This document shows, piece after piece, positions 45,082-62,307 of a stretch of 63,802 nucleotides of DNA. Made by a program: the position numbers and the translations under genes. This stretch comes from Microcystis aeruginosa Ma_MB_S_20031200_S102 (GTDB lineage: Bacteria; Cyanobacteriota; Cyanobacteriia; Cyanobacteriales; Microcystaceae): assembly GCA_007095845.1 (NCBI GenBank), contig SFBI01000108.1:1-63802 (forward strand), written 5' to 3'. Numbering within the stretch: position 1 is the stretch's first letter; every line of letters starts with the position of its first letter. A model generated the notes under the pieces. That model saw nothing but the letters and a program-made list of their open reading frames with translations, was not told where the DNA came from and did no database searches.

Positions 45082-45200
45082 GAATTTTTCGGCATTAAGA
45101 ATATTTTCGTCCCTCAGCGATCGCCATTTACCAGAGACTTGTGACTTTTTTAAAGAAATATTTTTCTTTTCTGTCTCCCCTTTGGGATTACACTGGTAAT

Positions 45201-45215
45201 TGAGAATAATTAGCA
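45201..45215 (+). promoter_or_regulatory. Fur-like operator upstream of feoA
   Basis: TGAGAATAATTAGCA matches the 7-1-7 Fur pattern TGATAATnATTATCA at 12 of 14 defined positions and keeps its own dyad symmetry. It is 167 bases upstream of the feoA start, so a long leader would be needed. Confidence 0.5.
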
Positions 45216-45381
45216 TTTATTTAAGCGATCGCAATTCTGAGACAGTTCAAAAACCGTTGACTGAGGCTGACATTAGGGGAGTTGTTACCCTTTAGCTACT
45301 TCAGTAAACTCGATGAGCTATCAAGAAATTATTGTCACTCTTGAATGAAAGACCTTCATTACCTTTGGAGATAAGAAAAGC

Positions 45382-46017
45382 ATGGACGATAAAATTAGAG
45401 CTAATGAACCAGAAAAACCAGAAAACTGGCAAAAAGACGACCAATTCTCCTATTGGGGCGGTACAGAGGCAGAATTAGATAATATCACTCCCCGGGGTAA
45501 TGACTTGGCTGCCACCTATCCCCTCGCACAAGTGGAAATGGGAAAAACCGTCTGGTTAGCGGGATTTCAGGGGACGGGAGGGATTAATCGACTCCTAGGT
45601 ATGGGATTAAACCCCGGTATTCAATTACAGGTGATTAGTTCCCAACCGAGGGGATCAGTTTTAATTGCCATTCAAGACAATCGTATTGGTATCGGGGCAG
45701 AAATGGCCGAAAAAATCCTCGTTAGTGACAGTCAACCGAAAAAACTGGAACCCAAAAAAGACCTACCTGAAGTAAGAACATTTCTGCGGGAGATACCCAT
45801 AGGAAAAGCGGGTAAAGTCGTCGGTTATGACCGAGCATTACGAGGATACAAAGGAAAATTGTTATCAATGGGATTAACTCCGGGGACAGAGTTTACCGTC
45901 ATTCGTGTGGCACCTTTGGGGGATCCCGTCGAGATTCGAGTGCGGGGATTTCATCTCAGTCTGCGTAAACAGGAAGCAGACGCTTTAATCGTCGAAGAAA
46001 TAGAGCCAGAAAGCTAA
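45382..46017 (+). CDS. feoA: Tandem FeoA-domain protein
   Basis: 211 residues with two SH3-like FeoA domains in one chain: about 50-115 (LAQVEMGKTVWLAGF, INRLLGMGLNPG) and about 130-208 (LREIPIGKAGKVVGYD, KLLSMGLTPGTEFTVI, GFHLSLRKQEADALIV). Usual FeoA is a single domain of about 75 residues. The role is as a cytosolic partner of the FeoB ferrous-iron transporter. feoB follows 42 bases downstream. Confidence 0.92.
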   Translation: MDDKIRANEPEKPENWQKDDQFSYWGGTEAELDNITPRGNDLAATYPLAQVEMGKTVWLAGFQGTGGINRLLGMGLNPGIQLQVISSQPRGSVLIAIQDNRIGIGAEMAEKILVSDSQPKKLEPKKDLPEVRTFLREIPIGKAGKVVGYDRALRGYKGKLLSMGLTPGTEFTVIRVAPLGDPVEIRVRGFHLSLRKQEADALIVEEIEPES

Positions 46018-46059
46018 ATTTAATCATCTAAGCCTATTTGTAACTATATATCCTAAATT

Positions 46060-48384
46060 ATGGTCAAACCGATTATCGCCTTAATTGGCAATCCTAACTG
46101 TGGCAAAACTACCCTTTTTAATGCTCTCACAGGAGCCAATCAACGGACCGGCAACTGGCCGGGAGTAACAGTCGATCGCAAAGAGGGACGATTTCAAGTT
46201 AACGGGGAAGATATCACCCTTGTGGATTTACCCGGAGTCTATTCCCTTGATGTGGAAGAAGGGGAGACAGGAATGGATGAATTAGTCGCTAGGGACTATC
46301 TGCTGTCAGGAGAGGCGGATTTAGTGATTAATATCGTCGATGCTTCTAATTTAGAGCGTAATCTCTACCTAACTACCCAAATCATGGAGATGCGTTTACC
46401 GATGTTGATTGCCCTAAATATGATGGATGTGGCCAAAACTAGGGGTATTCTGGTTAATCCGCAACTCTTAAGCGTTCGCATGGATGCAATTGTCGTGGCG
46501 ATTAGTGCGGTTAAAGGGGAAGGAATCGGAGAATTAAAGCAAAAAATTGGGGAATTAGTCAGTAATATTAGCCATACTGCCGCTTATGTCGCTTATCCTG
46601 CGGTAATTGAGGAAGCTCTTAACGAGATTGTTGCCTACATTGACGACCATAGCAGTAAAAGGATCGTTGAGCCAAGATGGACTGCTTTAAACCTACTGCA
46701 ATACGAGGATCGCATCGCCCCAGAATTGCGCTCCCAGGAACTATTAAGCATTATCGTCAAGCATAGACGACAAATACACCAAGTTTTAGGGGAAGACCTT
46801 GATATTTTAATTGCTGATACTCGTTATGGCTTTATTCAGCAAGTTACCCAGGGAGCCACTCAACGGACTGGACAGATAAATGATACCATGTCCGATCGCC
46901 TCGATCGGATTGTTCTTGATCGCTGGTGGGGAATTCCGATATTTTTGGGCGTAATGTACCTAATGTTCTTGTTTACCATCAATGTTAGTGCTGCCTTTAT
47001 CGATTTCTTCGATTTAACTGCCCAGACTATCTTTGTCGATGGTTTTGCCCAAGTTTTACAAAAAATCCATACCCCCGGTTGGCTAATTGCTCTGCTCGCT
47101 GATGGAGCGGGGGGAGGTGTGCAAACCGTCGCCACTTTTATCCCCGTAATTGGCTTTATGTTCCTCTTTTTGTCAATTTTAGAGGATTCTGGCTATATGG
47201 CCCGGGCAGCCTTCGTCATGGACCGATTGATGCGTTTGGTGGGATTGCCGGGTAAATCCTTTGTTCCCATGCTAGTGGGATTTGGTTGCAATGTGCCGGC
47301 AATTATGGCCACTAGGACTCTGGAAAATTCTCGCGATCGTTTAATGACGATTATGATGAACCCTTTTATGTCCTGTGGGGCCAGATTACCTGTTTATGCC
47401 CTATTTGCGGCGGCTTTTTTCCCCATAGGTGGTCAAAACATCGTTTTTGGTCTTTACATCTTAGGAATTCTCGCCGCTATTTTGACGGGATTGGTGATGA
47501 AAAAAACCCTACTCAAGGGAGAAGTCAGTCACTTTATTATGGAATTGCCTCCCTATCATCTACCGCGTCTAAAAGGGGTTTTAATTCGCACTTGGGAACG
47601 TCTGCAAGCGTTTTTATGGAAAGCTGGACGAATTATCGTTTTAATGGTGATGATTTTGGGACTACTCAACTCCGTCAGTTTTGATGGTTCTTTTGGTAAT
47701 CAAGACAGCGAGCGATCGGTTTTAAGTGCCACCAGTAAAGCTGTAACTCCTATTTTCTCACCCATGGGACTAGAGCAGCAAAATTGGCCGGCAACGGTGG
47801 GCATTTTTACGGGAGTTTTTGCCAAAGAAGCGATGGTAGGCACATTAAACTCGATTTACAGCCAACTAGCAGGGGAAGATAACCCGAATAAGGGGGCAAC
47901 ACAGGTAAAATTCGACTTTTGGGGGCAAATTCAGGAAGCTATCGCCACTATTCCCGCCAATTTAGCGGAATTACCCAATCAATTACTTGATCCCTTGGGT
48001 TTGAATATTGGTGATCTGCAAGATCAAAAAACGGCTGCCGAGAAGCAAGAGGTAGATTTAGGAATCTTTGGGGCGATGGCGAAAAGATTTGATGGTCAAG
48101 CGGGTGCTTTTGCCTATCTATTGTTTGTTCTGCTCTATTTTCCCTGTGTTTCGGCCACATCGGCCGTATATCGCGAAACTAATGCCGGTTGGACTGTTTT
48201 TATTGCCCTCTGGACCACAGGAATGGCCTATATTGTTGCCACTTCCTTCTATCAAATCGCCACTTTTTCTCGACATCCGGGATTTTCTCTCTTTTGGATA
48301 GTCTTGATGGGTTTAACCGTAGTCGGGGTTTTATTCACCTTAAAAAATCTCCCTCCCCGAAAAATCAACCGTCCCGCAATTTAA
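46060..48384 (+). CDS. feoB: Ferrous iron transporter FeoB
   Basis: 774 residues. The N-terminal G domain has G1 GNPNCGKTTLFN, G3 DLPGVYSL and G4 NMMD, followed by the helical switch region. The membrane domain has two Gate motifs (about 385-420: GLPGKSFVPMLVGFGCNVPA, with the conserved Cys) and several helices to the C-terminus. It imports Fe2+ across the inner membrane. In operon with feoA; STRR heptamers separate it from feoC. Confidence 0.96.
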   Translation: MVKPIIALIGNPNCGKTTLFNALTGANQRTGNWPGVTVDRKEGRFQVNGEDITLVDLPGVYSLDVEEGETGMDELVARDYLLSGEADLVINIVDASNLERNLYLTTQIMEMRLPMLIALNMMDVAKTRGILVNPQLLSVRMDAIVVAISAVKGEGIGELKQKIGELVSNISHTAAYVAYPAVIEEALNEIVAYIDDHSSKRIVEPRWTALNLLQYEDRIAPELRSQELLSIIVKHRRQIHQVLGEDLDILIADTRYGFIQQVTQGATQRTGQINDTMSDRLDRIVLDRWWGIPIFLGVMYLMFLFTINVSAAFIDFFDLTAQTIFVDGFAQVLQKIHTPGWLIALLADGAGGGVQTVATFIPVIGFMFLFLSILEDSGYMARAAFVMDRLMRLVGLPGKSFVPMLVGFGCNVPAIMATRTLENSRDRLMTIMMNPFMSCGARLPVYALFAAAFFPIGGQNIVFGLYILGILAAILTGLVMKKTLLKGEVSHFIMELPPYHLPRLKGVLIRTWERLQAFLWKAGRIIVLMVMILGLLNSVSFDGSFGNQDSERSVLSATSKAVTPIFSPMGLEQQNWPATVGIFTGVFAKEAMVGTLNSIYSQLAGEDNPNKGATQVKFDFWGQIQEAIATIPANLAELPNQLLDPLGLNIGDLQDQKTAAEKQEVDLGIFGAMAKRFDGQAGAFAYLLFVLLYFPCVSATSAVYRETNAGWTVFIALWTTGMAYIVATSFYQIATFSRHPGFSLFWIVLMGLTVVGVLFTLKNLPPRKINRPAI

Positions 48385-48528
48385 TTTCAGTTATCAGTTA
48401 TCAGTTATCAGTTATCAGATTGGAGTTTTAAGTGAGCAGTATTAAATGCAGTTTTCTGCTGTCTTTTCACCGATTACTGATTACTGAAATTCCCTAACTC
48501 CTAAATTTACCTTTATAGGTTTATAAAG

Positions 48529-48768
48529 ATGATTTTAACCGATATACAGGCTTATCTTGCCAAAAATCAGAAAGCATCTCTGGCTGACTTATCCACACAC
48601 TTTCGGATGTCAGCGGATGCCCTAAGTCCCATGCTCGATCGCTTGCTAAAAAAAGGGCGAATTCGTCTGATTTCCCTAGAAAAATGCGGAGGATGCAGCC
48701 GTTGTCCCCCGGAATCTATGGCTTTTTACGAATGGATTGAGGGCAATTCCACAGGGACAAACAACTAA
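48529..48768 (+). CDS. feoC: FeoC-like [Fe-S] winged-helix protein
   Basis: 79 residues: a winged helix (ILTDIQAYLAKNQKASLADL, then MSADALSPMLDRLLKKGRIR) followed by the cysteine cluster EKCGGCSRCPPE, which in FeoC binds an iron-sulfur cluster. Position after feoB fits. The 144-base gap before it contains four CAGTTAT heptamers and a GTGAGCAGTATTAAAT module also seen near 8.65 kb. Confidence 0.85.
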   Translation: MILTDIQAYLAKNQKASLADLSTHFRMSADALSPMLDRLLKKGRIRLISLEKCGGCSRCPPESMAFYEWIEGNSTGTNN

Positions 48769-48778
48769 GAGTTGAATA

Positions 48779-48865
48779 AGTACCTAGGCAAAATTAATTA
48801 CACATTTTGATAAAGCTTTTGCCTTTTGCCCATCTTCACTAGGAAATTTATTTTGCACGACTACT
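48779..48865 (-). repeat. Miniature element family B, copy 3
   Basis: Inverted relative to copy 1: AGTACCTAGGCAAAATTAAT to ATTTTGCACGACTACT, TA on both sides. It starts 10 bases after the feoC stop codon and ends 27 bases before the next gene. Confidence 0.85.
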
Positions 48866-48892
48866 TACTATCTTTTTGTAGGAGATAAAATT

Positions 48893-49441
48893 ATGATCAC
48901 TAACACAGAAATTGTCTCGACACAATCGGCCACCAGCGAGGATCCGCAAATACAATTGGCCGAATTTCTGCGAGAACATAATGAAGTGGAGATGATTATT
49001 CCAGTTTTAATGGGATTATTTATTACCAGTCGTTTTCAACTGCGAGGGGCCAATGCACTATTAGTTAATTTAGCCGTAGCCAGTATCTCGCGACAAATTT
49101 TCCAACAGTTAAAATCTCCCTTCACCAGTAACCCAAAAACTGCCGAAAAAAGCCCAGATTATAGCAATCAGGAAATAATACCGGGTTGTCGCATTGTTCA
49201 CTCGGTACCGGGACGAATTCGCCTTCGTATCGACCGTTTAAGTCAAGATGCTGCCTTTGCTAAAAGATTAAACCACCTCCTCGCAGCTGAGACAATTGTT
49301 CTTAGTCATCGCCTTAATCCTACCGCTGCCTCTCTGGCAATTACCTACGAAGCAGCCGGCCTCTCCGAGTTAGATTTAGGCTTTCGTCTGATCAATCTAC
49401 TTAATTTAGCCAATTCTGACAGTAATCTTGAAACTAGCTAG
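48893..49441 (+). CDS. HMA_2-domain protein (P-type ATPase-associated)
   Basis: 182 residues. The N-terminal half has a hydrophobic stretch (VEMIIPVLMGLFITSRF, about 32-48). The C-terminal half is a ferredoxin-like HMA_2 domain (about 98-165) beginning IVHSVPGRIRLRIDRL and lacking the CxxC metal site. The same motif opens the downstream ATPase (VVHSLPGRLRLRISRL). It is 12 bases upstream of that gene, so they are co-transcribed. It may be a membrane-associated partner of the ATPase. Confidence 0.75.
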   Translation: MITNTEIVSTQSATSEDPQIQLAEFLREHNEVEMIIPVLMGLFITSRFQLRGANALLVNLAVASISRQIFQQLKSPFTSNPKTAEKSPDYSNQEIIPGCRIVHSVPGRIRLRIDRLSQDAAFAKRLNHLLAAETIVLSHRLNPTAASLAITYEAAGLSELDLGFRLINLLNLANSDSNLETS

Positions 49442-49452
49442 ATTTTACTCCG

Positions 49453-51615
49453 ATGAACTTAAGCAAACTTTCCCTCAATTCCGTAAGCGTTGTTCACTCT
49501 CTCCCTGGTCGGCTGCGCTTGCGAATTTCCCGCCTAGCATCTGATAGGCATTTTGTCAAGACCTTAGAACAAAAATTAACTTCCCATCCCGCCATTACCC
49601 ATTTCCGCATCAACGCCGCCGCCGCCTCTCTGGTGATCGAGTATGCCCCCGCCCTCACCCCTGAAATAAACAGGGATTTTGGCTTGCTTTGGCAAAAAAT
49701 GCTCAATCAGCCCAACGAGTCTTCGATCGAGCCAGACAAGCCCCAAAAACTAGGGAAAGAAGAATGGTCTAACCTTGCCCTTCCCACCGCCGCCACCCTC
49801 CTCGCGATCGCCTGTCAACGTTTTCCCCAACCCGGTTTGAGCATCTTGGCCAGAAGCGTCCTTTTAGCCGCAGCTTTTCCCGTGGCAGCCCGGGCGCTGA
49901 AAAGTATCTTCGGAGAGCGTAAACTAAATATCGATTGTTTAGACCTCTTAGCCCTGATTTTTAGCGGTTTTCAAGGGAAATTATTGACACCTTCCCTGAT
50001 TATCACCCTCCATGAATTGGGGGACATTATTCGCGATCGTACCGCTAGGGCAACGGAAAAACGAACGGCTAATTTATTAGATACAATCGGTCATTACGCT
50101 TGGGTGGAAAAAGACGGCGAAATCAAGCAAATTACCAGTGATGCTGTCCAAATTGGCGAGACAGTGGTGGTTTATCCCGGAGAAAGCATCCCCGTTGATG
50201 GCACAGTCTGGCAAGGGGAAGCGGTAATCGACCAACAGCAACTAACCGGGGAATCCTTGCCTATTGTCGCCCGAAAAGGAACTCTCGTTTATGCCTCCAC
50301 CTTAGTTCGTTCCGGTCAGATCCGCCTCACCTGTGAACGAGTCGGTCAACAAACTCGCGCCGCTGCCAGTATCGAACTTCTGCAAAAAGCTCCTGTCCAT
50401 GATACCCGCATGGCCAATTATGCCGCTAATCTGGCTGATCGCCTGATTTTGCCTTCTTTAGGGTTAGCATCACTAATTTTTCTCACTACCCGAGATGCAG
50501 CCCGGGCCGCCGCTATTCTCACCCTCGATTTTGTCACGGGGATTCGGGTATCTTTACCTACAGCTTTTTTAGGCGCGTTGAATCATACCACCCGTCACGG
50601 GGTTTTGGTACGCAGTGGCAGAACTTTGGAGTTATTGGCAGATATCGATACGATTGTTTTTGATAAGACGGGAACTTTGACCACGGGGGAAGTGATGGTG
50701 GTGGGAGTGGAAACTATCCCTGGCCGCTTATCCCCAGAACGAATTCTTCAATTAGCGGCCTCGGCCGAACAAAGGATCACCCATCCCGTCGCTATGGCGA
50801 TCGCTAATTATGCCCAGCGCCAGGGTGTGGAAATCTTACCGAGGGGAGATTGGGATTACCAGTTAGGACTAGGAATGCGGGCAGAAATTGATGGTAATCA
50901 GGTATTGGTGGGCAGTGACAAGTTTTTACGCCAGCAAGGGGTCAATTTAGACGAATTTAGCGGTGATTTAGCCAACCCCGCCAGTGCTTGGGTGTCTCGC
51001 AATTATCTCGCCTGTAATGGGCAATTTCAGGGGGTAATCCACTATACTGACCCTTTGCGTGCCGATAGTCGTTGGTTAATCGATCGCCTACAGCAAGATT
51101 ATGGCATGACTGTGCATCTGTTGACGGGGGATAATCAACAAAGGGCGAAAGAAGTGGCGCAAGCGTTAAATATTCCCTTTGGCCAGGTTCATGCTGAGGC
51201 TTTTCCCGAACAAAAGGCTAAAATAGTTCGAGAATTGCATCGCTCTGGCCATACAGTCGCTTTTGTTGGCGATGGTCTCAATGATTCCGTGGCTTTGGCC
51301 TATGCAGATGTGTCGATTTCTTTCGAGAAGGGTTCGGAAGTGGCAAGAGAAACCGCCGACGTGGTACTGATGAATAATGATCTGAGCAGTTTACTAGAGG
51401 CGATCGCTATTGCCCAAGAAACTAAAGCTTTAATTGAACAAAATATTTTTCTAGTGGTCGCCCCGAATTTAGTCGCCCTCGTTTTGGCCACTAGCATCGG
51501 TCTTAATCCACTTTTAGCCACCGCAATTCATAACGGGACAGCAATTATTGCCGGTTTAAATAGTTTGCGTCCTCTGGTTTTTCATCAACTACAAGGTCAA
51601 AGGGAGACTCCATGA
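49453..51615 (+). CDS. P1B-like heavy-metal ATPase without CPC motif
   Basis: 720 residues. N-terminal HMA_2-type domain (about 10-75), TM helices, actuator domain with LTGESLPI, phosphorylation motif FDKTGTLTTG (Asp about 403), HP signature in ITHPVAMAI, and hinge GDGLNDSVALAYADVS. All P-ATPase catalytic residues are intact. In TM4 the expected CPC aligns with FVT in LDFVTGIRVSLPTAF, so it is neither a Cu+ nor a standard Zn/Cd pump. The context with feoABC suggests iron. The stop overlaps the next start (ATGA). Confidence 0.88.
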   Translation: MNLSKLSLNSVSVVHSLPGRLRLRISRLASDRHFVKTLEQKLTSHPAITHFRINAAAASLVIEYAPALTPEINRDFGLLWQKMLNQPNESSIEPDKPQKLGKEEWSNLALPTAATLLAIACQRFPQPGLSILARSVLLAAAFPVAARALKSIFGERKLNIDCLDLLALIFSGFQGKLLTPSLIITLHELGDIIRDRTARATEKRTANLLDTIGHYAWVEKDGEIKQITSDAVQIGETVVVYPGESIPVDGTVWQGEAVIDQQQLTGESLPIVARKGTLVYASTLVRSGQIRLTCERVGQQTRAAASIELLQKAPVHDTRMANYAANLADRLILPSLGLASLIFLTTRDAARAAAILTLDFVTGIRVSLPTAFLGALNHTTRHGVLVRSGRTLELLADIDTIVFDKTGTLTTGEVMVVGVETIPGRLSPERILQLAASAEQRITHPVAMAIANYAQRQGVEILPRGDWDYQLGLGMRAEIDGNQVLVGSDKFLRQQGVNLDEFSGDLANPASAWVSRNYLACNGQFQGVIHYTDPLRADSRWLIDRLQQDYGMTVHLLTGDNQQRAKEVAQALNIPFGQVHAEAFPEQKAKIVRELHRSGHTVAFVGDGLNDSVALAYADVSISFEKGSEVARETADVVLMNNDLSSLLEAIAIAQETKALIEQNIFLVVAPNLVALVLATSIGLNPLLATAIHNGTAIIAGLNSLRPLVFHQLQGQRETP

Positions 51616-51776
51616 GTAAATATGATAAATTAGCTAATAAAATTGCCAAAAAAGTTACTAAAAAATTGAGCAAAAAGTTAATTAAAGCCATCTATAACCG
51701 ACTGGATTTAGAAAATATTCTCTCCTCCCGTTCTTTTCCATTAGAAGAATTCGAGCGAGGTGATAATAGACATTAG
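51612..51776 (+). CDS. Small lysine-rich amphipathic protein, 54 residues
   Basis: ATG at 51612 overlaps the ATPase stop in an ATGA junction, a strong sign of translational coupling. The product begins MSKYDKLANKIAKKVTKKLS, continues as a basic amphipathic helix, and ends in an acidic tail (PLEEFERGDNRH). No family recognised. The helix could bind membranes or nucleic acid. Confidence 0.65.
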   Translation: MSKYDKLANKIAKKVTKKLSKKLIKAIYNRLDLENILSSRSFPLEEFERGDNRH

Positions 51777-52012
51777 ACCTCCGATAAAAATCCAAGATTG
51801 TTATGATGGTTTAAGAGTCGGTATCTGGGGAAGTCTTGACCCATCCACTAATAACTGATAGGTGAATATCTAGGCTATGTTCTCTTGAAAAAAAACTTAA
51901 TAATATTCCCTCAAAAACTATTCTATAATGGTACTCGTGTAGATAATGCTTCTAAGTTAAAAACTTTTGCTATCTACAGACTGAAGGCAACAAAATCAAT
52001 GGTTTAAAGCTC

Positions 52013-52321
52013 ATGGAAAAAACACAGATGTTAGAACAAACGAGAAAACTAGCACAAATTACTCCAGGGAAAGCGATCGTTTTCGGAATCGGTGCGCTGC
52101 TGTTGGCCCCCACCGTGATTTCTTTACTGAAACCGGTCGCCAAAGCAACGATTAAAACTGGCGTTGTTCTCTACGAAAAAACTAAGAGTTCCTTGGCCGA
52201 AACAGCAGAAGTGCTGGGGGATATAGTCGCCGAGGCCAAAGCAGAAGTCATAGCCGAACGCGATCATCAAGTGGTTCTACCCAGTGGGGTTAATTCGGAA
52301 CCCTCATTACACGATAGTTAA
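52013..52321 (+). CDS. DUF5132-like membrane protein
   Basis: 102 residues with one hydrophobic segment (GKAIVFGIGALLLAPTVISL, about 18-37) followed by LKPVAKATIKTGVVLYEKTK and a charged helix. It resembles DUF5132 proteins, which I recall as neighbours of HMA_2 proteins and metal ATPases. It shares the LxP-x(5-10)-K-x-IK-x-G pattern with the product at 53628-53879. Function unknown. Confidence 0.6.
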   Translation: MEKTQMLEQTRKLAQITPGKAIVFGIGALLLAPTVISLLKPVAKATIKTGVVLYEKTKSSLAETAEVLGDIVAEAKAEVIAERDHQVVLPSGVNSEPSLHDS

Positions 52322-52437
52322 TTTCTGGCGAGTAACCAAAGTCACTCAACCCTGTTGGCCCTCAACCCGCAGAACCTCAAAGTTGTATAATCTTTAAGAG
52401 TTATTAAGCTTTGTGTCAGTTTGCCCAGCAGGATTGA

Positions 52438-53421
52438 ATGAATATACTTTTGGTGACATCATCTTTAGGGTTACTCCTAGCGATCGCTATCGTCGTCTAT
52501 TTTGTTTCCTCTCGCAAGTACCAATCATCGGACTCGGTGGCCAATTCCTACGACCAATGGACCGAGGACGGGATTTTAGAATATTATTGGGGGGAACACA
52601 TCCATTTAGGTCACTACGGTTCCCCACCAGAAAAAAAAGACTTTCTAGCGGCAAAAGCCGACTTTGTGGCGGAAATGGTCTCTTGGGGAGGTTTGGATAA
52701 ACTACCCGCCGGTGCAACTCTCCTTGATGTCGGTTGTGGTATTGGTGGCAGCAGTCGCATTCTGGCCCGCGACTACGGATTTGCCGTTACCGGTGTCACT
52801 ATTAGTCCCAAACAAGTGGCACGGGCCAAAGAACTAACACCCCCAGATGTAAATGCTCGCTTTTTGGTCGATGATGCCATGGACCTTTCTTTTCCTGACG
52901 AGAGTTTTGATGTGGTCTGGTCAATTGAAGCCGGTCCCCATATGCCGGACAAAGCCGTTTTTGCTGGGGAATTACTGCGAGTTCTCAAACCAGGGGGAGT
53001 CCTGGTGGTAGCGGACTGGAATCAGCGAGATGACCGTCAAAAACCGCTTAATTTCTGGGAACGTCCCGTCATGCGCCAACTTTTGGATCAGTGGTCTCAC
53101 CCCGCTTTTGCCAGCATCGAAGGTTTTGCCGAACAGTTAGCGGCCACGGGATTGGTAGATGGGGAAGTGATGACTGCTGACTGGACAACAGCCACTCTAC
53201 CCTCTTGGATTGATACCATTTGGCAGGGGGTGATTCGTCCCCAAGGTTGGTGGCAATTTGGTCTAACTGGGTTGCTTAAATCCGTCCGAGAAGTGCCGAC
53301 AATTCTGCTGATGCGTTTGGCCTTTGGCACGGGTTTATGTCGTTTTGGGATGTTCCGCGCTGTTCGCGCTCAATCCCATCTGCAACCAAGTCAGCAAGAG
53401 TCTCTTACCTCAGTTATGTAG
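52438..53421 (+). CDS. MPBQ/MSBQ methyltransferase (tocopherol/plastoquinone pathway)
   Basis: 327 residues: N-terminal membrane anchor (LLVTSSLGLLLAIAIVVYFV), then the SAM-binding core LLDVGCGIGGSSRILARDYG and WSIEAGPHMPDKAVF, plus QSSDSVANSYDQWTEDGIL and QLLDQWSHPAFASIEGFAE. These match Synechocystis Sll0418 closely. It methylates 2-methyl-6-phytyl- and solanesyl-benzoquinol. Start ATG with AGGA upstream. The TAG stop uses the first base of a family D element; before insertion it would have been TAA. Confidence 0.92.
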   Translation: MNILLVTSSLGLLLAIAIVVYFVSSRKYQSSDSVANSYDQWTEDGILEYYWGEHIHLGHYGSPPEKKDFLAAKADFVAEMVSWGGLDKLPAGATLLDVGCGIGGSSRILARDYGFAVTGVTISPKQVARAKELTPPDVNARFLVDDAMDLSFPDESFDVVWSIEAGPHMPDKAVFAGELLRVLKPGGVLVVADWNQRDDRQKPLNFWERPVMRQLLDQWSHPAFASIEGFAEQLAATGLVDGEVMTADWTTATLPSWIDTIWQGVIRPQGWWQFGLTGLLKSVREVPTILLMRLAFGTGLCRFGMFRAVRAQSHLQPSQQESLTSVM

Positions 53422-53609
53422 GGTTTGCTGAATAAATCTAAAAATCTTATTGGGTAAGACTTTTGGACTTTTTTTTCCTCAAAAAGTCCCAACCATTGGA
53501 GTGATCGGGGGGAAAATTCCTGGACTTTTTCCCTGAAAATTAGGTAATTGACCCCCTCAAAATCGATAAAACCCCACACCCCACAGGAAAAACTTTTTGC
53601 CACAAACCC
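53421..53609. repeat. Miniature element family D, copy 3
   Basis: 189 bp, TA-flanked (53419-53420, 53610-53611), left GGGTTTGCTGAATAAATC, right (inverted) GGGTTTGTGGCAAAAAGT. Internally near-identical to 54994-55266. The left TA plus first G form the stop codon of the methyltransferase gene. Confidence 0.85.
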
Positions 53610-53627
53610 TAACTAGAGGCAATCCAA

Positions 53628-53879
53628 TTAATTATTGATCGGGTTGTGGGGAATAGTAGGAGTTTTGATCAGTGACGATCGAGCTTGGAGAGATAGGCCA
53701 CTTTTGATAATTTGTTTGAGAATTGGTCGGCCTAATTTGACCGCAGCTGGCAGCACAACCGCACCGATAACAACTGTTCCCAAACCAAAGAGAGCCGTTC
53801 GATCTCCAGATTCGTGATCTTCGATAATTTCTTTGAGATGAAAAGTCAGAATCGATTTATCCCAGTGAATAATCGCCAT
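53628..53879 (-). CDS. DUF5132-like membrane protein, second copy
   Basis: 83 residues: polar start, hydrophobic segment (ALFGLGTVVIGAVVLPAAVK, about 29-48), then LGRPILKQIIKSGLSLQARS, the core of DUF5132-like proteins. It lies 11 bases downstream of the Crp-type regulator on the same strand, so the two are probably one operon. Function unknown. Confidence 0.6.
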   Translation of the reverse strand: MAIIHWDKSILTFHLKEIIEDHESGDRTALFGLGTVVIGAVVLPAAVKLGRPILKQIIKSGLSLQARSSLIKTPTIPHNPINN

Positions 53880-53890
53880 AGGTTTATCTC

Positions 53891-54451
53891 CTAATAAGGA
53901 TGAAATTGGGTGTCAGCAGAAGGTAAAACAATAATATGTCCTCCCGCACGAGAAATCAGACCTTGTTGCTCGAATTCATTGATGAGTCGGGTAATGCTCA
54001 CTCTGGTCATCCCGACCATTTCGGCTAATTCCCGATGAGTGAAACGGATATCGATACGCTGGCCCGTTTCTGCGGGACGACCGAACTTTTGGGATAATTG
54101 AATTAGAGTTTTCAGAAAACGCAGCCTAGGCCGATCGCGACGCAGGGAACAGAGCCAATGCTCAGTTTGTTGAACGTGACGACAGAGAGCCGAGGAAAGA
54201 CTGCTACCCCGTTCAAGAGGAAGACAAGTAGCTTCAACGCTAGTGCAGCACTGCATCTCGTAGGGTTGAATCTGCGATAGGGGACGGCCGACCACATCAT
54301 TTTCTCCCCAATAGCCGAGGATGACGATTTCTCCTTCCTCATCCCACGTCATCACCTTAACCACACCGCGATTGATTAACCAAAGAGCATCCAGACGCGA
54401 GGGTAGGGGGTCACGGGGTTGAAATAGACGAGTGACGAGAGGTTCCCGCAT
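53891..54451 (-). CDS. Crp/Fnr-family transcription regulator
   Basis: 186 residues from ATG at 54449-54451. A short cyclic-nucleotide-binding-like beta-barrel (about 1-100; glycine-poor, without the classical RxS phosphate site, so the ligand is unclear) and a C-terminal winged helix RFTHRELAEMVGMTRVSITRLINEFEQ (helix-turn-helix about 140-160). A CC pair (MQCCTSVEATC) and another Cys in the sensor half could be redox- or metal-responsive. Transcribed together with the DUF5132-like gene. Confidence 0.83.
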   Translation of the reverse strand: MREPLVTRLFQPRDPLPSRLDALWLINRGVVKVMTWDEEGEIVILGYWGENDVVGRPLSQIQPYEMQCCTSVEATCLPLERGSSLSSALCRHVQQTEHWLCSLRRDRPRLRFLKTLIQLSQKFGRPAETGQRIDIRFTHRELAEMVGMTRVSITRLINEFEQQGLISRAGGHIIVLPSADTQFHPY

Positions 54452-54990: not shown

Positions 54991-54993
54991 TTA

Positions 54994-55266
54994 GGGTTGG
55001 CTGAATAAATCTAAAAACCTTGTTGGGTAAGACTTTTAGACTTTTTGTCAATCAAAAAGTACCAAATATGAGAGTGATTGGGGGGAAAATCCCTGGACTT
55101 TTTCCCTGAAAATTAGGTAATTGACCCCGGCGGTTCGACAAGCTCACCGTCCACTCGACTGAGCGTTCGACTGAGCTCACGCCGAAGTCTCGCCGAACGT
55201 CCTCAAAATCAGTAAAACCCTACACCCCACACCCTGCCTCCACCAACAAACTTTTTCAGCAAACCC
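54994..55266. repeat. Miniature element family D, copy 4, with insert
   Basis: TA-flanked, ends GGGTTGGCTGAATAAATC and (inverted) GGGTTTGCTGAAAAAGTT. Relative to copy 3 it carries about 75 extra bases (55128-55202) of a separate GC-rich repeat starting CGGTTCGACAAGCTCACCG. No gene in 54991-55425. Confidence 0.8.
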
Positions 55267-57155: not shown

Positions 57156-57965
57156 TTAACGTTCGCAAACATGAGTCGGATCATCGGCTTTTTCTGCATA
57201 TTCTAGACCCTTAGCCAATCGCCAAGCGAAAATAGGAGGTAAACCCGATGCTAAAATAGCCTGACAGGTTTCTTGATAGTTATAGGCCACTTCTCGCAGT
57301 TGTACCGCTGCCGTTTCTCGATCGTAAATCACATAGGTGGCATTTGGACGACCGTGACGTGGTTCTCCCACCGATCCCACGTTGATGATACGCTTGACCG
57401 GTGTGGTAAATTGCCGCGACTGTTCCCCATCCGGTTGATACACTTTTATTTGCAAGCTTCCCGCGTCGAGAGTGCGAATGTAGGGGATGTGGGTATGTCC
57501 ACAGAATAAAACCTCTGTATCTACCGATAAAACCCGTTCTAAAGCCGTAAAAGCGTCCATTTCGGCTAAAAGGTACTCATGGTTACTTTGGGGACTACCA
57601 TGGACAAAACAGAGGTGATCTAGCTTAAAAATTTCGGGCAGTTTTGACAAATAATTACGGTTTTCTGGGGTGATTATTTGATTTGTCCACTCATGAGCTA
57701 ATCTACCGCGTTTTTCTGCTAAAAGCGACGGATAACTGCATTCACAGGCATTTAATCCCTCAACGATATCCTCATCCCAACACCCTTGTACTGTAGTAAT
57801 CCCCAGTTGACGGATTTTTTCCACCACTTGGTTAGGATGGGGTCCATACCCGACTAAATCCCCTAAACAGTAGATTTCTTGACAACCCTGTTGGTCTAAA
57901 TCTTGCAAAACAGCATTAAAAGCGGGCATATTGCCATGAATACAGGATAAAACGGCTATTTTCAT
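57156..57965 (-). CDS. Calcineurin-like metallophosphoesterase
   Basis: 269 residues. Motifs: LSCIHGN (the usual SDIHGN with Cys for Asp), LGDLVGYGP, GCWDE (instead of GNHD), CFVHGSP and FCGHTHIPY, and VGSVGEPRHGRPNATY typical of YfcE/Icc-like phosphoesterases. The first and third motifs deviate at metal ligands, so metal use may be unusual. Its ATG overlaps the CobW-like stop (ATGA), which indicates translational coupling to that gene. Confidence 0.85.
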   Translation of the reverse strand: MKIAVLSCIHGNMPAFNAVLQDLDQQGCQEIYCLGDLVGYGPHPNQVVEKIRQLGITTVQGCWDEDIVEGLNACECSYPSLLAEKRGRLAHEWTNQIITPENRNYLSKLPEIFKLDHLCFVHGSPQSNHEYLLAEMDAFTALERVLSVDTEVLFCGHTHIPYIRTLDAGSLQIKVYQPDGEQSRQFTTPVKRIINVGSVGEPRHGRPNATYVIYDRETAAVQLREVAYNYQETCQAILASGLPPIFAWRLAKGLEYAEKADDPTHVCER

Positions 57966-58744
57966 CAGATTAACTCCATTTCTGGCTCTAAAGATTCTTG
58001 AAATTGTTGTTGATAATAAAAAAGTGCCTCATCGGACAGACAACAATCACTCAGGGTATCGGCAATTGTCGGTTTATCGAGATTGCGACCGACGATTTCA
58101 ATCCCACTAAAGCGATTCGGTCTCCCATCGAGATTTAAGGGGAAATTTAGGCTTTGAAAGTCTTTTTCTGGCCATTCATCCATAAATTCCCCATAAATAC
58201 ACTGACCATCGATGATATCGAAGATACTTTTAACCCGCAGCACTTCCCCATAGGCCCCTTGGGTTAATTCTGTCCAAAAGGTGGTTAAACTGGAAAAATC
58301 GAGGACTTCTCCCGTTAAAACGGCTCTATAAATCTGTATTTCTCGTTTTTTTAACCATTGATTACCTTTTATGGTTGTTTTGACGGGACTGATGACAATT
58401 TCATCGACGGGAACTTGTCCTTCGGGGATTTCTTCGTCTGGAGACGTAATCGCTACCCGATGACAATTGAGGGGTTTTAGAAAGCTTTCGAGGGATTGCG
58501 TGTCTAAATGCCATGGTACTTCCATATAGACCGTGTTTTCCATGGATAAACTGCTCAAAAGGTCTTCTTCTTCCCTAGAAATAGAGGACAACTGGGGAAA
58601 GTCACTCTGTAAAGTGAGATGATCAATGGGAAAAGTTTCCGTCTGGGGACTAAAATATAGGCTTGGCTGCTTGCTCTGAGCGATTTGTTCGCGAATCCAA
58701 TGGGTTTTTCCCGCAGCTATACCCCCCGTCACCACGATAATCAT
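57965..58744 (-). CDS. Short CobW-like P-loop protein
   Basis: 259 residues. N-terminal Walker A GGIAAGKTHW (about 7-16), but no recognisable NKxD and no CxCC motif. The C-terminal part (GIEIVGRNLDKPTIADTLSD) resembles the CobW C-terminal domain of the larger GTPase at 59.3 kb (LVFIGRNLNKEEILTQLNE). It looks like a reduced COG0523 family member. A Zur-like palindrome lies 22-38 bases upstream, and metallophosphoesterase genes follow in the same operon. A zinc-starvation role is inferred. Confidence 0.7.
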   Translation of the reverse strand: MIIVVTGGIAAGKTHWIREQIAQSKQPSLYFSPQTETFPIDHLTLQSDFPQLSSISREEEDLLSSLSMENTVYMEVPWHLDTQSLESFLKPLNCHRVAITSPDEEIPEGQVPVDEIVISPVKTTIKGNQWLKKREIQIYRAVLTGEVLDFSSLTTFWTELTQGAYGEVLRVKSIFDIIDGQCIYGEFMDEWPEKDFQSLNFPLNLDGRPNRFSGIEIVGRNLDKPTIADTLSDCCLSDEALFYYQQQFQESLEPEMELI

Positions 58745-58765
58745 TCTGCTCCTTCTCTACTGTGG

Positions 58766-58782
58766 TAATGATAATCATTCTA
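58766..58782 (-). promoter_or_regulatory. Zur-like operator before the CobW-like operon
   Basis: TAATGATAATCATTCTA, a near-palindrome sharing GATAATCATT with the site before thrS. Located 22-38 bases upstream of the start codon, a position suited to repression. Confidence 0.65.
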
Positions 58783-58874
58783 GCATAAGTCAGATTGGGG
58801 CAAGTAATCTTCCTTAACCAATCCTCTAGACTTAGCCAGGTTATTTTGGGAAAAATTGGCGGTTTCTTGGGATA

Positions 58875-58997
58875 TTAATCATGGTTATGGCTCTTTTCTC
58901 TAGGATACCATTGGCTTTGTCCATCGGGTAAATCAACTAAGGTAATTCCCCTCGTTTTTAATTGTTCCCTTAATCGATCGCTTTCGGGATAGTTTTT
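58875..58997 (-). pseudogene. cysS: C-terminal remnant of cysteinyl-tRNA synthetase
   Basis: Minus-strand frame ending at TAA 58875-58877 reads KNYPESDRLREQLKTRGITL then VDLPDGQSQWYPREK, the typical last 35 or so residues of CysRS. Upstream it is cut by a hairpin repeat (58998-59041), and the rest of the gene is missing. It could be the tail of a former second cysS. Confidence 0.7.
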
Positions 58998-59041
58998 TCA
59001 GCGAGAAAACGGGTTTCTTGAAGAGATCGTTTTCTCGCTGA
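58998..59041. repeat. Hairpin repeat family F, copy 1
   Basis: TCAGCGAGAAAAC paired with GTTTTCTCGCTGA, loop containing GGGTTTCTTGAAGAGATC. Shares AAAACGGGTTTCTTGAAGA with 62490-62520. It interrupts the cysS remnant. Confidence 0.8.
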
Positions 59042-59283
59042 ATTGATCGCCGCAAAAATAAGGGTTAAATGGCATAAAATCTGTAAGTAGTCGTGCAAAA
59101 CTAATTTCCTAGTAAAGATAGGCAAAAGGCAAGAGGCAAAAGGCAAGAGGGGGTTAGATATGTGTAATTAATTTTGCTTAGGTACTTAATTGATTATTAT
59201 TCATTCTTAATTCTCCTGACTACTGACTACTGGCTACTGACTCCTAACCCTAAAAACGATTTTTGATTTCTGCAAGAGGTCTA
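59042..59283. repeat. Miniature element family E, copy 2, split by family B copy 4
   Basis: Sequence collinear with 8490-8644 (TAAGGGTTAAATGGCATAAA, later TGATTATTATTCATTC, TGACTACTGGCTACTGACTC, GCAAGAGGTCTATT). At 59086-59186 a TA-flanked family B element interrupts it. The left end is truncated. The right end stops 1-2 bases before the stop codon of the CobW gene. Confidence 0.75.
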
Positions 59284-59284
59284 T

Positions 59285-60310
59285 TCATAGTTTGTGCTTT
59301 TGAATTTTTTGCGAACTAGCCAAGCATTCGTTTAGTTGTGTCAAGATTTCCTCTTTATTCAAATTTCTGCCGATAAAAACTAACTGATTTTTAGGAGATG
59401 TATCCCATTCTACCGCTTGCAGATCGTAACGAAGACCGCTCAATTGAAAAATATGTTTTAAATCGCTTTGTTGAAACCAGAGAATCCCTTTAGCTCGAAA
59501 AACATTTATCGGCATTTTTTCCGTGAGAAAAGGTTCAAATTTATCTAGATTAAATGGTTTATCGCTAACAAAGGAGACAAAATTAAAGTCTTCAGGAGAT
59601 TGATTATTACTGGAGCTTGGGCGATTTTTTTGAAAGTCTCTCAACTGGTTTTTATACAATTCTTCTTTAGTCAAACCTAGATCTAACAATAAACCTAAAG
59701 GAACCTGACCATAACTACTTTTTAGGAGTCTTATACCCTGTTTTTCTCGACGAATAAACTTTTCTAGATTATCTAATTTTTTGCCACTGACTCGATCTAT
59801 CTTATTGAGAATTACCACGTCACCGTAACGAATTTGACTAAGGGCAATATTACTATCAAAATGATCAGCAGTAAAGGTTTCAGAATCCACGAGGGTAATA
59901 ATAGAATCTAAGCGAGTCAAATATTTTAATTCTGTGGCTAAAAAAGTCAGAATAATTGGCAAAGGATCGGCTAATCCTGTGGTTTCAATGATTAGATAGT
60001 CCACGGGTATTTCTTTTTCTAAGACCTGATAGACTGTCTCAATTAAACTATCATTAATCGTACAACAAATACAGCCATTACTCAATTCTACCATATCTTC
60101 ATCAATGGAAACAAGCAATTGAGAATCAATATTAATATCTCCAAATTCATTAACTAATACGGCAACTTTTAAACCTTCTTTATTGTCAAGAATATGATTT
60201 AGTAAGGTAGTTTTTCCACTACCCAAAAAACCAGTAATAATCGTCACAGGCATTCCCGATTTTGGTAAGCAAGGGAGGGAATCGGAGAGAGGAATTATCA
60301 AAGAACTCAT
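59285..60310 (-). CDS. COG0523/CobW GTPase metallochaperone
   Basis: 341 residues. G domain: Walker A ITGFLGSGKTTLLNHIL, ELSNGCICCTI with the metal-binding CxCC motif, IIETTGLADPLPI, and guanine-specificity NKID in VVILNKIDRVS. CobW C-terminal domain from about 245 (FVSFVSDKPFNL). No His-rich tail. COG0523 proteins such as ZigA and ZNG1 deliver zinc to client enzymes in deficiency. It lies 114 bases downstream of thrS, which has a Zur-like box, so both probably respond to zinc. Confidence 0.92.
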   Translation of the reverse strand: MSSLIIPLSDSLPCLPKSGMPVTIITGFLGSGKTTLLNHILDNKEGLKVAVLVNEFGDINIDSQLLVSIDEDMVELSNGCICCTINDSLIETVYQVLEKEIPVDYLIIETTGLADPLPIILTFLATELKYLTRLDSIITLVDSETFTADHFDSNIALSQIRYGDVVILNKIDRVSGKKLDNLEKFIRREKQGIRLLKSSYGQVPLGLLLDLGLTKEELYKNQLRDFQKNRPSSSNNQSPEDFNFVSFVSDKPFNLDKFEPFLTEKMPINVFRAKGILWFQQSDLKHIFQLSGLRYDLQAVEWDTSPKNQLVFIGRNLNKEEILTQLNECLASSQKIQKHKL

Positions 60311-60424
60311 GGCAGCTAACCCACTTTTAAGTTAATTAATTGGCAGAAAATAGGCTTTTCTCAACCCTGTTAAATTCGCTTGGAGGGGATCGATATCCAC
60401 TAATTGCTGGTTTATACAAAAGTT

Positions 60425-62281
60425 TCAGAGATTAGTTTTAGATAGGATCGCTGTTTGCATTTTTTCTAATAAATCTGCCAGCGTCATCAAACCTAAATCT
60501 CCCCCTTGTCGAGTGCGAATGCTTAGAGTTTTACTGCTAACTTCTCGTTTTCCAATCACAGCTAAGACAGGGATTTTTTCCAGTTCTCCTGTACGAATTT
60601 GTTTGCCTAAACGCTCACCACTTTTATCGATTTCCACTCGATAACCAGCTTGTTTTAACTGCATTGCTACCTCTAAAGCATAATGCTGCTGTTCATCACT
60701 AACGGGTAATAAACGGACTTGAATAGGTGCTAACCAGAGAGGAAAATCTCCCGCATAATTCTCGATTAAGATACCAAAAAATCTTTCCAAAGAGCCAAAA
60801 ATAGCTCGATGAATCATAATCGGTCTTTCCCGAGTACCATCCCTAGCGACATATTGCATATCAAAGCGTTCTGGCAAGTTAAAATCGACCTGAATCGTGG
60901 AACATTGCCACATTCTACCGATCGCATCTTGAATTTTTATATCAATTTTCGGACCATAAAAAGCCCCACCTCCCTGATCCTCAATATAGTCCCACTTTTT
61001 AGCATTTAAGGCCTCAATTAGAGCCGCCGTTGCCAATTCCCAAACACTATCACTACCCACGGATTTACTGGGGCGAGTCGATAAATTTATCTGATAATTA
61101 GTAAAGCCAAAATCGGAGAGAATTTTCTCGGTTAAGTTCAAAACTCCTAGAATCTCTGCGGCAATTTGTTCGGGCAAACAAAAAATATGAGCATCATCTT
61201 GAGTAAAACCTCTTACCCGCATTAATCCGTGTAAAACCCCCGATCGCTCGTAACGATAAACTGTGCCTAATTCTGCCCATCTGAGGGGAAATTCTCGATA
61301 GGAATGCAGGTCATTTTGATAGGTTAAAACATGAAAAGGACAATTCATCGGCTTAATTTGATAGCTTTGCTGTTCTAACTCGATCGCCTCAAACATATTG
61401 TCGCGATAAAAGTCCCAATGTCCAGAAGTTTTCCACAGATCTAAATTAGCTAGATGGGGAGTATAAAGAAATTGATAACCCGCTTCTAAATGAGCTTGGC
61501 GCCAATAATCTTCGATTAAATAACGCATTGTTGCACCCCGGGGATGCCAAAAAACTAAGCCACCACCGGCATCTTCTTGGATGCTAAATAATTTTAATTG
61601 TTGTCCCAATTTGCGATGATCTCGTCGCTGCGCTTCTTCTTTTTGTTGGAGATAATTTTGTAATTCTGCGGGGGTTTGCCAAGCTGTGCCGTAAATTCGC
61701 TGTAATTGCGGCTGTTTTTCATCTCCTTGCCAATAAGCACCCGCTACACTCTCCAAGACGAAAGCATTCGGGTTAATTTCCCCCGTCGAGTTGAGATGGG
61801 GTCCCGCACACAGATCCCACCAAAATTCTTCCGGGGGAGAAACAGCGCCGTCAATTAACGAGGGTTCTCGATCGCTCCGTCCTGCGTCCGGACTACCGAT
61901 AAAATAACGGGTAATGGTTTCATCTGGGGGAATTCTCTCTAAAATTAACTTTTTGTAGGGTTGATTAAGGCGCTCGATTTCTGCGGTAATTTCGCTTTTT
62001 TCCACCACTTCTCGGATAATTGGCAGGTTTTTCCCGATAATTCGCCCCATTTCTGCCGCTATTTTCTCCAAATCTTCGGGGGTAAAGGGTGTTTGGCGAT
62101 CAAAATCGTAGTAAAATCCCGTTTCTGTCCAAGGACCAATAGCGACTTTGGTTTCAGGAAAGAGAGTTTGTACGGCCATTGCTAAGACATGGGCGCAAGT
62201 ATGACGTATTTTTACGATTTTTTGCGAATCTTCCTCGATAACGGGGCTTTCTGTTAGAGGATACCTAATTTGATTGACCAT
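60425..62281 (-). CDS. thrS: Threonyl-tRNA synthetase
   Basis: 618 residues, class II. No N-terminal TGS domain; it starts almost directly with the editing domain (RHTCAHVLAMAV, HxxxH). Catalytic domain zinc ligands: Cys in KPMNCPFHVLTYQ, His in TQDDAHIFC, His in MIHRAIFGSLERF. C-terminal anticodon domain from about 510. The enzyme needs active-site zinc. A Zur-like palindrome directly before the gene and the CobW gene after it suggest that this is the zinc-regulated ThrRS paralogue (T2-type, as described in Anabaena) rather than the constitutive one. Confidence 0.93.
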   Translation of the reverse strand: MVNQIRYPLTESPVIEEDSQKIVKIRHTCAHVLAMAVQTLFPETKVAIGPWTETGFYYDFDRQTPFTPEDLEKIAAEMGRIIGKNLPIIREVVEKSEITAEIERLNQPYKKLILERIPPDETITRYFIGSPDAGRSDREPSLIDGAVSPPEEFWWDLCAGPHLNSTGEINPNAFVLESVAGAYWQGDEKQPQLQRIYGTAWQTPAELQNYLQQKEEAQRRDHRKLGQQLKLFSIQEDAGGGLVFWHPRGATMRYLIEDYWRQAHLEAGYQFLYTPHLANLDLWKTSGHWDFYRDNMFEAIELEQQSYQIKPMNCPFHVLTYQNDLHSYREFPLRWAELGTVYRYERSGVLHGLMRVRGFTQDDAHIFCLPEQIAAEILGVLNLTEKILSDFGFTNYQINLSTRPSKSVGSDSVWELATAALIEALNAKKWDYIEDQGGGAFYGPKIDIKIQDAIGRMWQCSTIQVDFNLPERFDMQYVARDGTRERPIMIHRAIFGSLERFFGILIENYAGDFPLWLAPIQVRLLPVSDEQQHYALEVAMQLKQAGYRVEIDKSGERLGKQIRTGELEKIPVLAVIGKREVSSKTLSIRTRQGGDLGLMTLADLLEKMQTAILSKTNL

Positions 62282-62294
62282 TGCCAGTTAAAAC

Positions 62295-62307
62295 GATAAT
62301 CATTATC
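62295..62307 (-). promoter_or_regulatory. Zur-like operator before thrS
   Basis: GATAATCATTATC is a perfect palindrome around one central base, matching the Zur/Fur-type GATAATnATTATC pattern, 14-26 bases upstream of the thrS start codon. Confidence 0.72.

What the first reader, a model, noticed from the sequence alone, without database searches (positions are those of the whole stretch)
45201..54451. Candidate iron-storage (ferrosome-like) locus next to feoABC in a cyanobacterium
In one run lie a Fur-like box, feoA (tandem), feoB, feoC, an HMA_2 protein, a P1B-like ATPase with a matching N-terminal HMA_2 domain, a coupled 54-residue amphipathic protein, two DUF5132-like membrane proteins and a Crp-type regulator. 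Seen directly: gene order, the shared VHSxPGRxRLRI motif in two consecutive proteins, the ATGA coupling, and intact P-ATPase catalysis with no CPC. Known: ferrosome (fez) clusters pair a P1B-6-type ATPase (FezB) with small membrane or HMA-like partners, often near iron-uptake genes. Inference: this set may build an iron-loading compartment or an intracellular metal store.
Basis: partly seen in the sequence, partly recalled or inferred. Interest (0 to 1): 0.75.

Follow-up and report, generated by a model that had tools for sequence, protein, structure and literature searches.

The report
Feo-linked FezB-sister iron pump module
In this cyanobacterium, genes that take up ferrous iron sit beside a metal pump and small membrane helpers related to those that build bacterial iron-storage compartments, so it may be an iron store of a kind not yet shown in oxygen-producing photosynthesizers; only experiments can tell.

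Summary
The gene run is real: feoA (two domains), feoB, feoC, an HMA_2 protein, an HMA_2 P-type ATPase and two related small membrane proteins. With the TM4 motif masked, the ATPase falls in a P1B-6-like group (100/98), apart from the Cu-, Zn/Cd- and Co-type pumps sampled. It lies in a D-x-T-G clade (98/95), sister (100/99) to a D-x-x-C clade (98/95) that holds fez-type operon ATPases; placing it inside the fez-operon clade is rejected. Feo linkage holds: feoA and/or feoB stands near the ATPase in 19 of 29 loci of its subclade, 0 of 11 paralog loci and 0 of 20 CPC-pump controls; three FeoB architectures recur, ferritin in 3 of 29. A FezC-like cytochrome was found in 0 of 28 cyanobacterial genomes. 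Crp regulator, methyltransferase and 54-residue protein were not found in related loci; the Fur box is weak. Best reading: a Feo-coupled Fe(II) pump, sister to FezB-type pumps, probably loading an internal store; plasma-membrane Fe(II) efflux is the main rival. "Ferrosome locus" is not shown.

The parts
45196..45220 (.). weak Fur-box-like pair upstream of feoA (two overlapping 13-of-19 matches)
   Evidence: not above chance alone
45382..46017 (+). FeoA, two FeoA domains in one protein (211 aa)
   Evidence: Pfam FeoA, 2 stretches, 6e-33
46060..48384 (+). FeoB, ferrous iron transporter (774 aa)
   Evidence: Pfam FeoB_N, Gate, FeoB_C, FeoB_Cyto; NCBIfam FeoB 1.7e-248, over its cut-off
48529..48768 (+). 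FeoC-like protein (79 aa)
   Evidence: Pfam FeoC 3.1e-18
48893..49441 (+). HMA_2 helper protein: a moderately hydrophobic N-terminal stretch (possible membrane anchor) plus a C-terminal HMA_2 domain, one cysteine (182 aa)
   Evidence: Pfam HMA_2 6.6e-8; hydropathy; cysteine; a small HMA_2 gene within 4 kb in 23 of 29 subclade loci (L200 counted as a miss because its ATPase was not called)
49453..51615 (+). P1B-6-related P-type ATPase with N-terminal HMA_2 domain; TM4 LDFVTGIRVSLPT, TM6 HNGT (720 aa)
51612..51776 (+). 54-aa lysine-rich ORF overlapping the ATPase stop (ATGA); conservation not found
52013..52321 (+). DUF5132 small protein with one strongly hydrophobic stretch and an acidic Ala/Glu-rich tail (102 aa); possible scaffold (inference)
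   Evidence: Pfam DUF5132 3.5e-16; hydropathy; DUF5132 family near 22 of 29 subclade ATPases
53628..53879 (-). 83-aa hydrophobic protein of a DUF5132-related family (MAIIHWDKSILTFHLKEI)
   Evidence: hhalign to the DUF5132 alignment, probability 90%, E 1.9e-6; near 20 of 29 subclade ATPases

Best explanation
A Feo-coupled Fe(II) handling module. FeoABC brings Fe(II) into the cytosol (established family function). The HMA_2 ATPase, a P1B-6-related pump in the clade sister to the one with fez-operon ATPases, then moves Fe(II) out of the cytosol using ATP (direction from P-type ATPase knowledge; the metal is inferred from Feo linkage). The HMA_2 helper may hand over metal or regulate the pump, and the DUF5132-type proteins may cluster pumps in the membrane as PacL does for CtpC (inferred). 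Most likely the pumps fill a membrane-bounded internal iron store, as FezB is thought to do in ferrosomes, because an exporter built in with an iron-uptake operon makes most sense as storage (inferred). Shown here: gene content, clade, recurrent Feo linkage. Not shown: metal, direction, location, any compartment.
For: Tree with TM4 masked, 60 rows: D-x-T-G clade with the window (98/95), sister to a D-x-x-C clade with fez-type operon ATPases (98/95), joined 100/99, inside a P1B-6-like group 100/98 apart from the Cu-, Zn/Cd- and Co-type pumps sampled (the 79-row quick tree has the same order, with 95, 94, 99 and 99). TM6 HN, named a P1B6 feature in PMC9374683 (passage read), is present (HNGT). 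FeoA and/or FeoB near 19 of 29 subclade loci, in 9 of 11 families, versus 0 of 11 paralog loci and 0 of 20 control loci, all 20 of which hold a CPC pump; FeoB alone 18 of 29. Three FeoB architectures (whole canonical, whole divergent, split) and three FeoA families recur. A ferritin gene lies in the stretch in 3 of 29 (Pfam Ferritin 6.5e-38 for the one tested). Among 11 Desulfovibrionaceae loci with D-x-x-C ATPases, 4 also have feoAB alongside. The DUF5132 family aligns with the YtxH-like protein of fez-type operons, hhalign probability 76%, E 2.2e-5. In Synechocystis feoB and feoA rise with iron lack (PMC11221513, passages read).
Against: FezC-like cytochrome 0 of 28 cyanobacterial genomes. 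ATPase inside the fez-operon clade rejected (group named after the tree was seen). TM4 Cys and Lys of the D-x-x-C pumps are Thr and Arg here. No feoA or feoB in 10 of 29 subclade stretches (three of these stretches are under 10 kb, seven are 18-20 kb). One genome of the same genus has feoB at 98% but no such ATPase, another has neither (the feoB contig of the first ends close by). Fur box weak. Location unknown: plasma-membrane export would give the same genes. PMC4932525 (2016, passage) says no P1B-6 pump had then been examined biochemically.
Confidence: 0.48

Rival explanations
1. Plasma-membrane Fe(II) safety valve: the same Feo-coupled pump sends surplus Fe(II) out to the periplasm after re-supply, without any compartment.
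For: Same clade and Feo linkage. Ferritin stands in the stretch in 3 of 29 loci, so a vesicle store is not required. FezC-like protein 0 of 28 genomes.
Against: A pump next to an uptake operon that is induced by iron lack would be a futile cycle unless controlled separately; no Fur-type site above background was found before the HMA_2 gene. The known Fe(II) effluxers PfeT and FrvA are P1B-4 (recalled), another subgroup.
Confidence: 0.3
2. PacL/CtpC-like efflux platform for another divalent metal such as Mn or Zn, with DUF5132 as scaffold; the Feo neighbour would then reflect a Mn or mixed-metal transporter.
For: DUF5132 proteins share with PacL the layout of a membrane stretch plus an Ala/Glu-rich tail (PMC9374683, abstract and passages). 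Split and divergent FeoB forms in some loci could carry other metals (inference). A TM4 without Cys suits harder ions (inference).
Against: The two DUF1490-type ATPases sampled (L067, L083) keep CPC and fall outside the joined D-x-T-G/D-x-x-C clade (both, L067). No DUF1490 match at E up to 1 in the ten window proteins tested and no DLHDHDH tail here (the sequence ends SLHDS). The window's own FeoB is canonical and over the NCBIfam cut-off.
Confidence: 0.14
3. Chance or operon-convenience linkage: the ATPase has no functional tie to Feo.
For: 10 of 29 subclade stretches show no feoA or feoB; the module is patchy within the genus.
Against: 19 of 29 versus 0 of 31 controls, with three FeoB architectures, in 9 of 11 families.
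Confidence: 0.05

Closest known systems
FezB and fez operons (ferrosomes; the primary paper, Grant 2022, could not be read; passages of PMC12016538, PMC10979944, PMC12574912 read)
   Same: P1B-6-like ATPase with N-terminal HMA_2 (PGRxR) domain and HN in TM6; small HMA_2 proteins and small membrane proteins with acidic tails alongside; feo genes next door in part of the loci
   Different: sister clade, not inside; TM4 D-x-T-G-x-R instead of D-x-x-C-x-x-K; no FezC-like cytochrome found; other small proteins (DUF5132 and the 83-aa family)
PacL-CtpC effluxosome (PMC9374683, passages read)
   Same: P1B6-like pump next to a small membrane protein with an Ala/Glu-rich tail that may scaffold pumps
   Different: CtpC has CPC in TM4; DUF1490 and the DLHDHDH metal motif are lacking here; Zn context versus Feo context
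DUF6110-P1B6 pairs (PMC9374683 discussion; L109 by Pfam, L068 by annotation)
   Same: small membrane protein encoded with a P1B6 ATPase
   Different: another small-protein family; D-x-x-C TM4
FeoABC ferrous iron uptake
   Same: all three genes present
   Different: tandem FeoA domains in one protein; joined to the ATPase module

Membership tests
fez / ferrosome locus | P1B-6-type ATPase (HN in TM6, N-terminal HMA_2 domain, not CPC) | tested here: met
   the HN feature from PMC9374683
fez / ferrosome locus | ATPase inside the clade of fez-type operon ATPases (operons named here by gene content) | tested here: not met
   sister clade; joint clade rejected by AU test
fez / ferrosome locus | TM4 D-x-x-C of the fez-type operon ATPases sampled here (feature derived here, not from the fez paper) | tested here: not met
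   D-x-T-G in 29 of 29 subclade members (28, L200)
fez / ferrosome locus | FezC, a DUF4405-like cytochrome (PMC10979944) | tested here: not met
   0 of 28 cyanobacterial genomes; 3 of 3 fez-type genomes hit, but these supplied rows of the model
fez / ferrosome locus | small membrane partner proteins homologous to those of fez-type operons | tested here: inconclusive
   small HMA_2 partner present; DUF5132 versus YtxH-like hhalign 76%
fez / ferrosome locus | control by Fur (C. difficile FezA and FezB; PMC12574912, passage) | tested here: inconclusive
   weak box, not above chance in the window alone; 2 of 7 tandem-feoA upstream regions at P 0.01 or less
fez / ferrosome locus | published FezB N-terminal motif and operon tables | not tested
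   primary papers not held
fez / ferrosome locus | forms membrane-bounded iron granules | not testable with these tools
   needs microscopy
P1B-6-like ATPase group | clade apart from Cu-, Zn/Cd-, Co-type pumps; HN in TM6 | tested here: met
   100/98; HNGT
P1B-6-like ATPase group | transports Fe(II) | not testable with these tools
   a table in PMC7558416 lists Fe(II) for P1B-6 (passage); PMC4932525 says none examined (passage)
PacL-CtpC effluxosome | DUF1490 partner with C-terminal His/Asp metal motif | tested here: not met
   no DUF1490 match at E up to 1; DUF5132 instead
PacL-CtpC effluxosome | CPC in TM4 | tested here: not met
   LDFVTGIRVSLPT
P1B-1/2/4 Cu, Zn/Cd, Co exporters | CPC or SPC in TM4 and placement with those pumps | tested here: not met
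Feo system | FeoA, FeoB, FeoC domains | tested here: met

The most novel reading that the evidence does not exclude
The D-x-T-G clade is a second line of ferrosome-building pumps without the TM4 cysteine, and its Feo-linked subclade makes ferrosome-like iron stores in oxygen-producing cyanobacteria, with DUF5132-family proteins in place of the fez scaffold proteins and no FezC.
Probability: 0.32. Interest if true: 0.85.

Novelty: new variant of a known kind. Interest (0 to 1): 0.64.

Why it matters
Ferrosomes are proposed as iron-storage organelles in anaerobiosis (PMC12016538, passage). It also gives a clean test of metal choice: the same pump frame with Thr in place of the TM4 Cys.

Tried and rejected
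Rejected: a Cu/Zn/Cd/Co exporter (the types of the outgroup pumps are named from TM4 motifs by recall); membership inside the fez-operon clade; Crp regulator, methyltransferase and 54-aa protein as conserved parts; a convincing Fur box. Promoter and terminator scans of the region gave no more than shuffles (13 versus 15.4; 11 versus 11.4). Profile comparison of DUF5132 with the fez-type YtxH-like proteins gave a lead (76%), not proof.

Led nowhere: the two primary ferrosome papers and two further papers are not held, so the published FezB motif and operon tables could not be checked. A search for DUF5132 found 0 papers; one for HMA_2 or PF19991 found 369, of which the 20 listed are on plant HMA2 and other unrelated matters. 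DUF4405 matches there are all below Pfam's cut-off (E 0.0036 to 0.46).

Rows dropped or chosen: the trees used 79 and 60 of 214 extracted P-type ATPases, many of these near-copies, chosen by me for spread. The label D-x-T-G in the trees also covers a few rows that read S or H at the T position (L061, L055_1; also L053_1, L058). Only 8 of the 29 subclade loci are in the trees; the other 21 were assigned by score (E 1e-219 or better, or the broken copy L057) and TM4. In one search genome G003 (a likely subclade member split over short contigs, L020) and L183 (nearest relative just outside) were left out; L057, a broken ATPase copy, was kept. A weak FeoB hit in L057 did not pass. The 20 control loci were picked by me from the CPC-type hits; a check found a CPC pump in 20 of 20. 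The 11 Desulfovibrionaceae loci were picked by me from 62 genomes with a match. The P-values (FeoB 3.7e-8, FeoA 9.8e-9) treat loci as independent, which near-relatives are not.


Full report
What is there. Between 45382 and 52321 on the plus strand lie feoA (two FeoA domains), feoB, feoC, a 182-aa HMA_2 protein, a 720-aa P-type ATPase that begins with its own HMA_2 domain, a 54-aa ORF overlapping the ATPase stop, and a DUF5132 protein; after a methyltransferase-family ORF, an 83-aa hydrophobic protein and a Crp-type regulator follow on the minus strand. HMA_2 gene and ATPase are 11 bases apart, and feoC and the HMA_2 gene 124 bases (coordinates), so one transcript is possible but not shown. 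The catalytic motifs are intact; TM4 reads LDFVTGIRVSLPT where Cu and Zn pumps have CPC.

What kind of pump. By sequence the best solved relatives are CopA structures, with ZntA lower in the list, which only shows the P1B kind. I therefore gathered P-type ATPases from the own genome, other cyanobacterial genomes, named plasmids and named genome contigs and read TM4 and TM6 of 214 of them, near-copies included. Two kinds without CPx stand out: D-x-x-C (mostly DYSCALK) and D-x-T-G-x-R. With TM4 masked, a 60-row tree puts each in its own clade (98/95 both; the Priestia pump L062, also D-x-x-C, falls outside), makes them sisters (100/99), joins them with L062, a CtpC-like and two Desulfovibrionaceae CPC pumps (100/98), and leaves the Cu-, Zn/Cd- and Co-type pumps sampled outside. 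The 79-row quick tree has the same order. The window ATPase is D-x-T-G. HN in TM6, given as a P1B6 feature in PMC9374683 (passage read), is present.

Where fez-type operons fall. D-x-x-C pumps of Vibrio sp. THAF190c, Azospirillum, Arcobacter, Cereibacter, Hahella and Desulfovibrionaceae sit in runs with small HMA_2-type proteins, small membrane proteins, a YtxH-like protein and, in several, a DUF4405-like protein with conserved His. FezC is reported to be a DUF4405-like cytochrome (PMC10979944, passages read), and R. palustris CGA009 makes ferrosomes from six fez genes (PMC12016538, passage read). I take these runs as fez-type by content; the primary paper could not be read. Holding the window subclade together with the fez-operon clade is rejected (AU p 2.8e-62; the group was named after the tree was seen). 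So: sister, not member.

Is the linkage to iron uptake real? In a draw of 388 genomes of the class, 28 carry the window's subclade, the window's genome among them (hits at E 1e-219 or better; 32 of 388 at 1e-190). I read stretches of 5 to 20 kb around 29 loci: these 28 and a broken copy in G022. FeoB homologs lie in 18 of 29, FeoA in 19, FeoC in 7, DUF5132 proteins in 22, the 83-aa family in 20, ferritin in 3 and the Crp gene in 1. Among 11 loci of D-x-T-G paralogs FeoA and FeoB are 0 of 11, while DUF5132 is 7 of 11; among 20 control loci, each with a CPC pump, all of these are 0 of 20. Nine of 11 families show Feo. The FeoB partners are of three architectures: whole canonical (7 loci), whole divergent (5), and split into a GTPase ORF and a membrane ORF (6, one of them partial); Pfam confirmed four of the divergent and split ORFs. 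The association has therefore probably arisen or been reshuffled more than once (inference). Against it: 10 of 29 show none, three of them on stretches under 10 kb; a second genome of the genus has feoB (98%) without the ATPase, though its contig ends close by, and a third has neither.

The small proteins. DUF5132 (window 52013-52321) has one strongly hydrophobic stretch and an acidic Ala/Glu-rich tail. The 83-aa family is related to it (hhalign 90%). The YtxH-like proteins of fez-type operons align with it over the hydrophobic stretch and tail (76%, E 2.2e-5). PacL1, a membrane protein with Glu/Ala repeats, is reported to assemble CtpC into platforms (PMC9374683, abstract and passages). A scaffold role for DUF5132 is an inference from this likeness.

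Mechanism, with what is shown and what is inferred. Shown: gene content, clade, linkage. From established knowledge: FeoB imports Fe(II); P-type ATPases of this kind move their ion out of the cytosol. Inferred: the metal is Fe(II) (Feo linkage; ferritin in some loci; a TM4 without cysteine suits harder ions); the target is an internal compartment rather than the periplasm (an exporter tied to an uptake operon; the sister clade holds the ferrosome-type pumps). In Synechocystis feoB rises 3.48-fold with iron lack (PMC11221513, passages). The window's Fur-like box does not beat chance alone, 2 of 7 orthologous tandem-feoA regions do, and no site above background stands before the HMA_2 gene. I give 0.48 to the store, 0.30 to plasma-membrane efflux of Fe(II), 0.14 to another metal, 0.05 to no tie.

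What is known. Paper searches for ferrosome (30 papers), FezB (4), P1B-6 (3), DUF5132 (0), feoB with cyanobacteria, P-type ATPase and Fur (14), ferrosome with cyanobacteria (4), Microcystis with feoB and iron (11) and PCC 7002 terms (18) listed no title or abstract start on such a module in cyanobacteria. This rests on listings plus passages of ten papers, and on the open library only. From memory, intracellular iron deposits have been described in an iron-tolerant filamentous cyanobacterium; the paper I tried for this is not held.

Verdict.

Noticed in passing
window 57965-62300, minus strand: A CobW/COG0523-type GTPase (59285-60310) and a second threonine-tRNA ligase (60425-62281; another copy elsewhere in the genome, 54% identical) with the window's two best Fur/Zur-type boxes (16 of 19) at 62289 and 58764, just upstream of two of the minus-strand genes: looks like a zinc-starvation (Zur) island (the Zur link is recalled).
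   Followed up: partly
window 53425-53560 and 54993-55130: A similar stretch of about 130 bases (gctgaataaatctaaaaa ... attaggtaattgacccc) stands on both sides of the 83-aa gene and the Crp gene, like a small repeated element; seen by eye.
   Followed up: no
L168-L173 (Desulfovibrionaceae genomes): Each of these six loci holds two or three different P-type ATPases (CPC, DYSC-type and in some a second D-x-x-C), with a roughly 247-aa FeoA-containing protein next to one in some (Pfam tested on L168 only); feoAB beside the cluster in 4 of the 11 loci L168-L178.
   Followed up: partly
L187, L188, L045, L046, L200: FeoB appears split into a roughly 200-aa GTPase ORF and a roughly 485-aa membrane ORF near this ATPase module; Pfam checked on L187 only.
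   Followed up: partly
L057 (G022): The orthologous ATPase is broken by a stop codon and frame change in this genome while DUF5132 and HMA_2 neighbours remain.
   Followed up: no
G000:C219:4899-6977 (L052): The window's genome carries a second D-x-T-G ATPase (46% identical) with two weak DUF5132-like hits and no Feo neighbour on its 10-kb contig.
   Followed up: partly
L065 (Cereibacter azotoformans plasmid): A D-x-x-C HMA_2 ATPase run beside a FeoA gene and siderophore TonB receptors on a plasmid typed as conjugative: a possibly mobile fez-type cluster.
   Followed up: no
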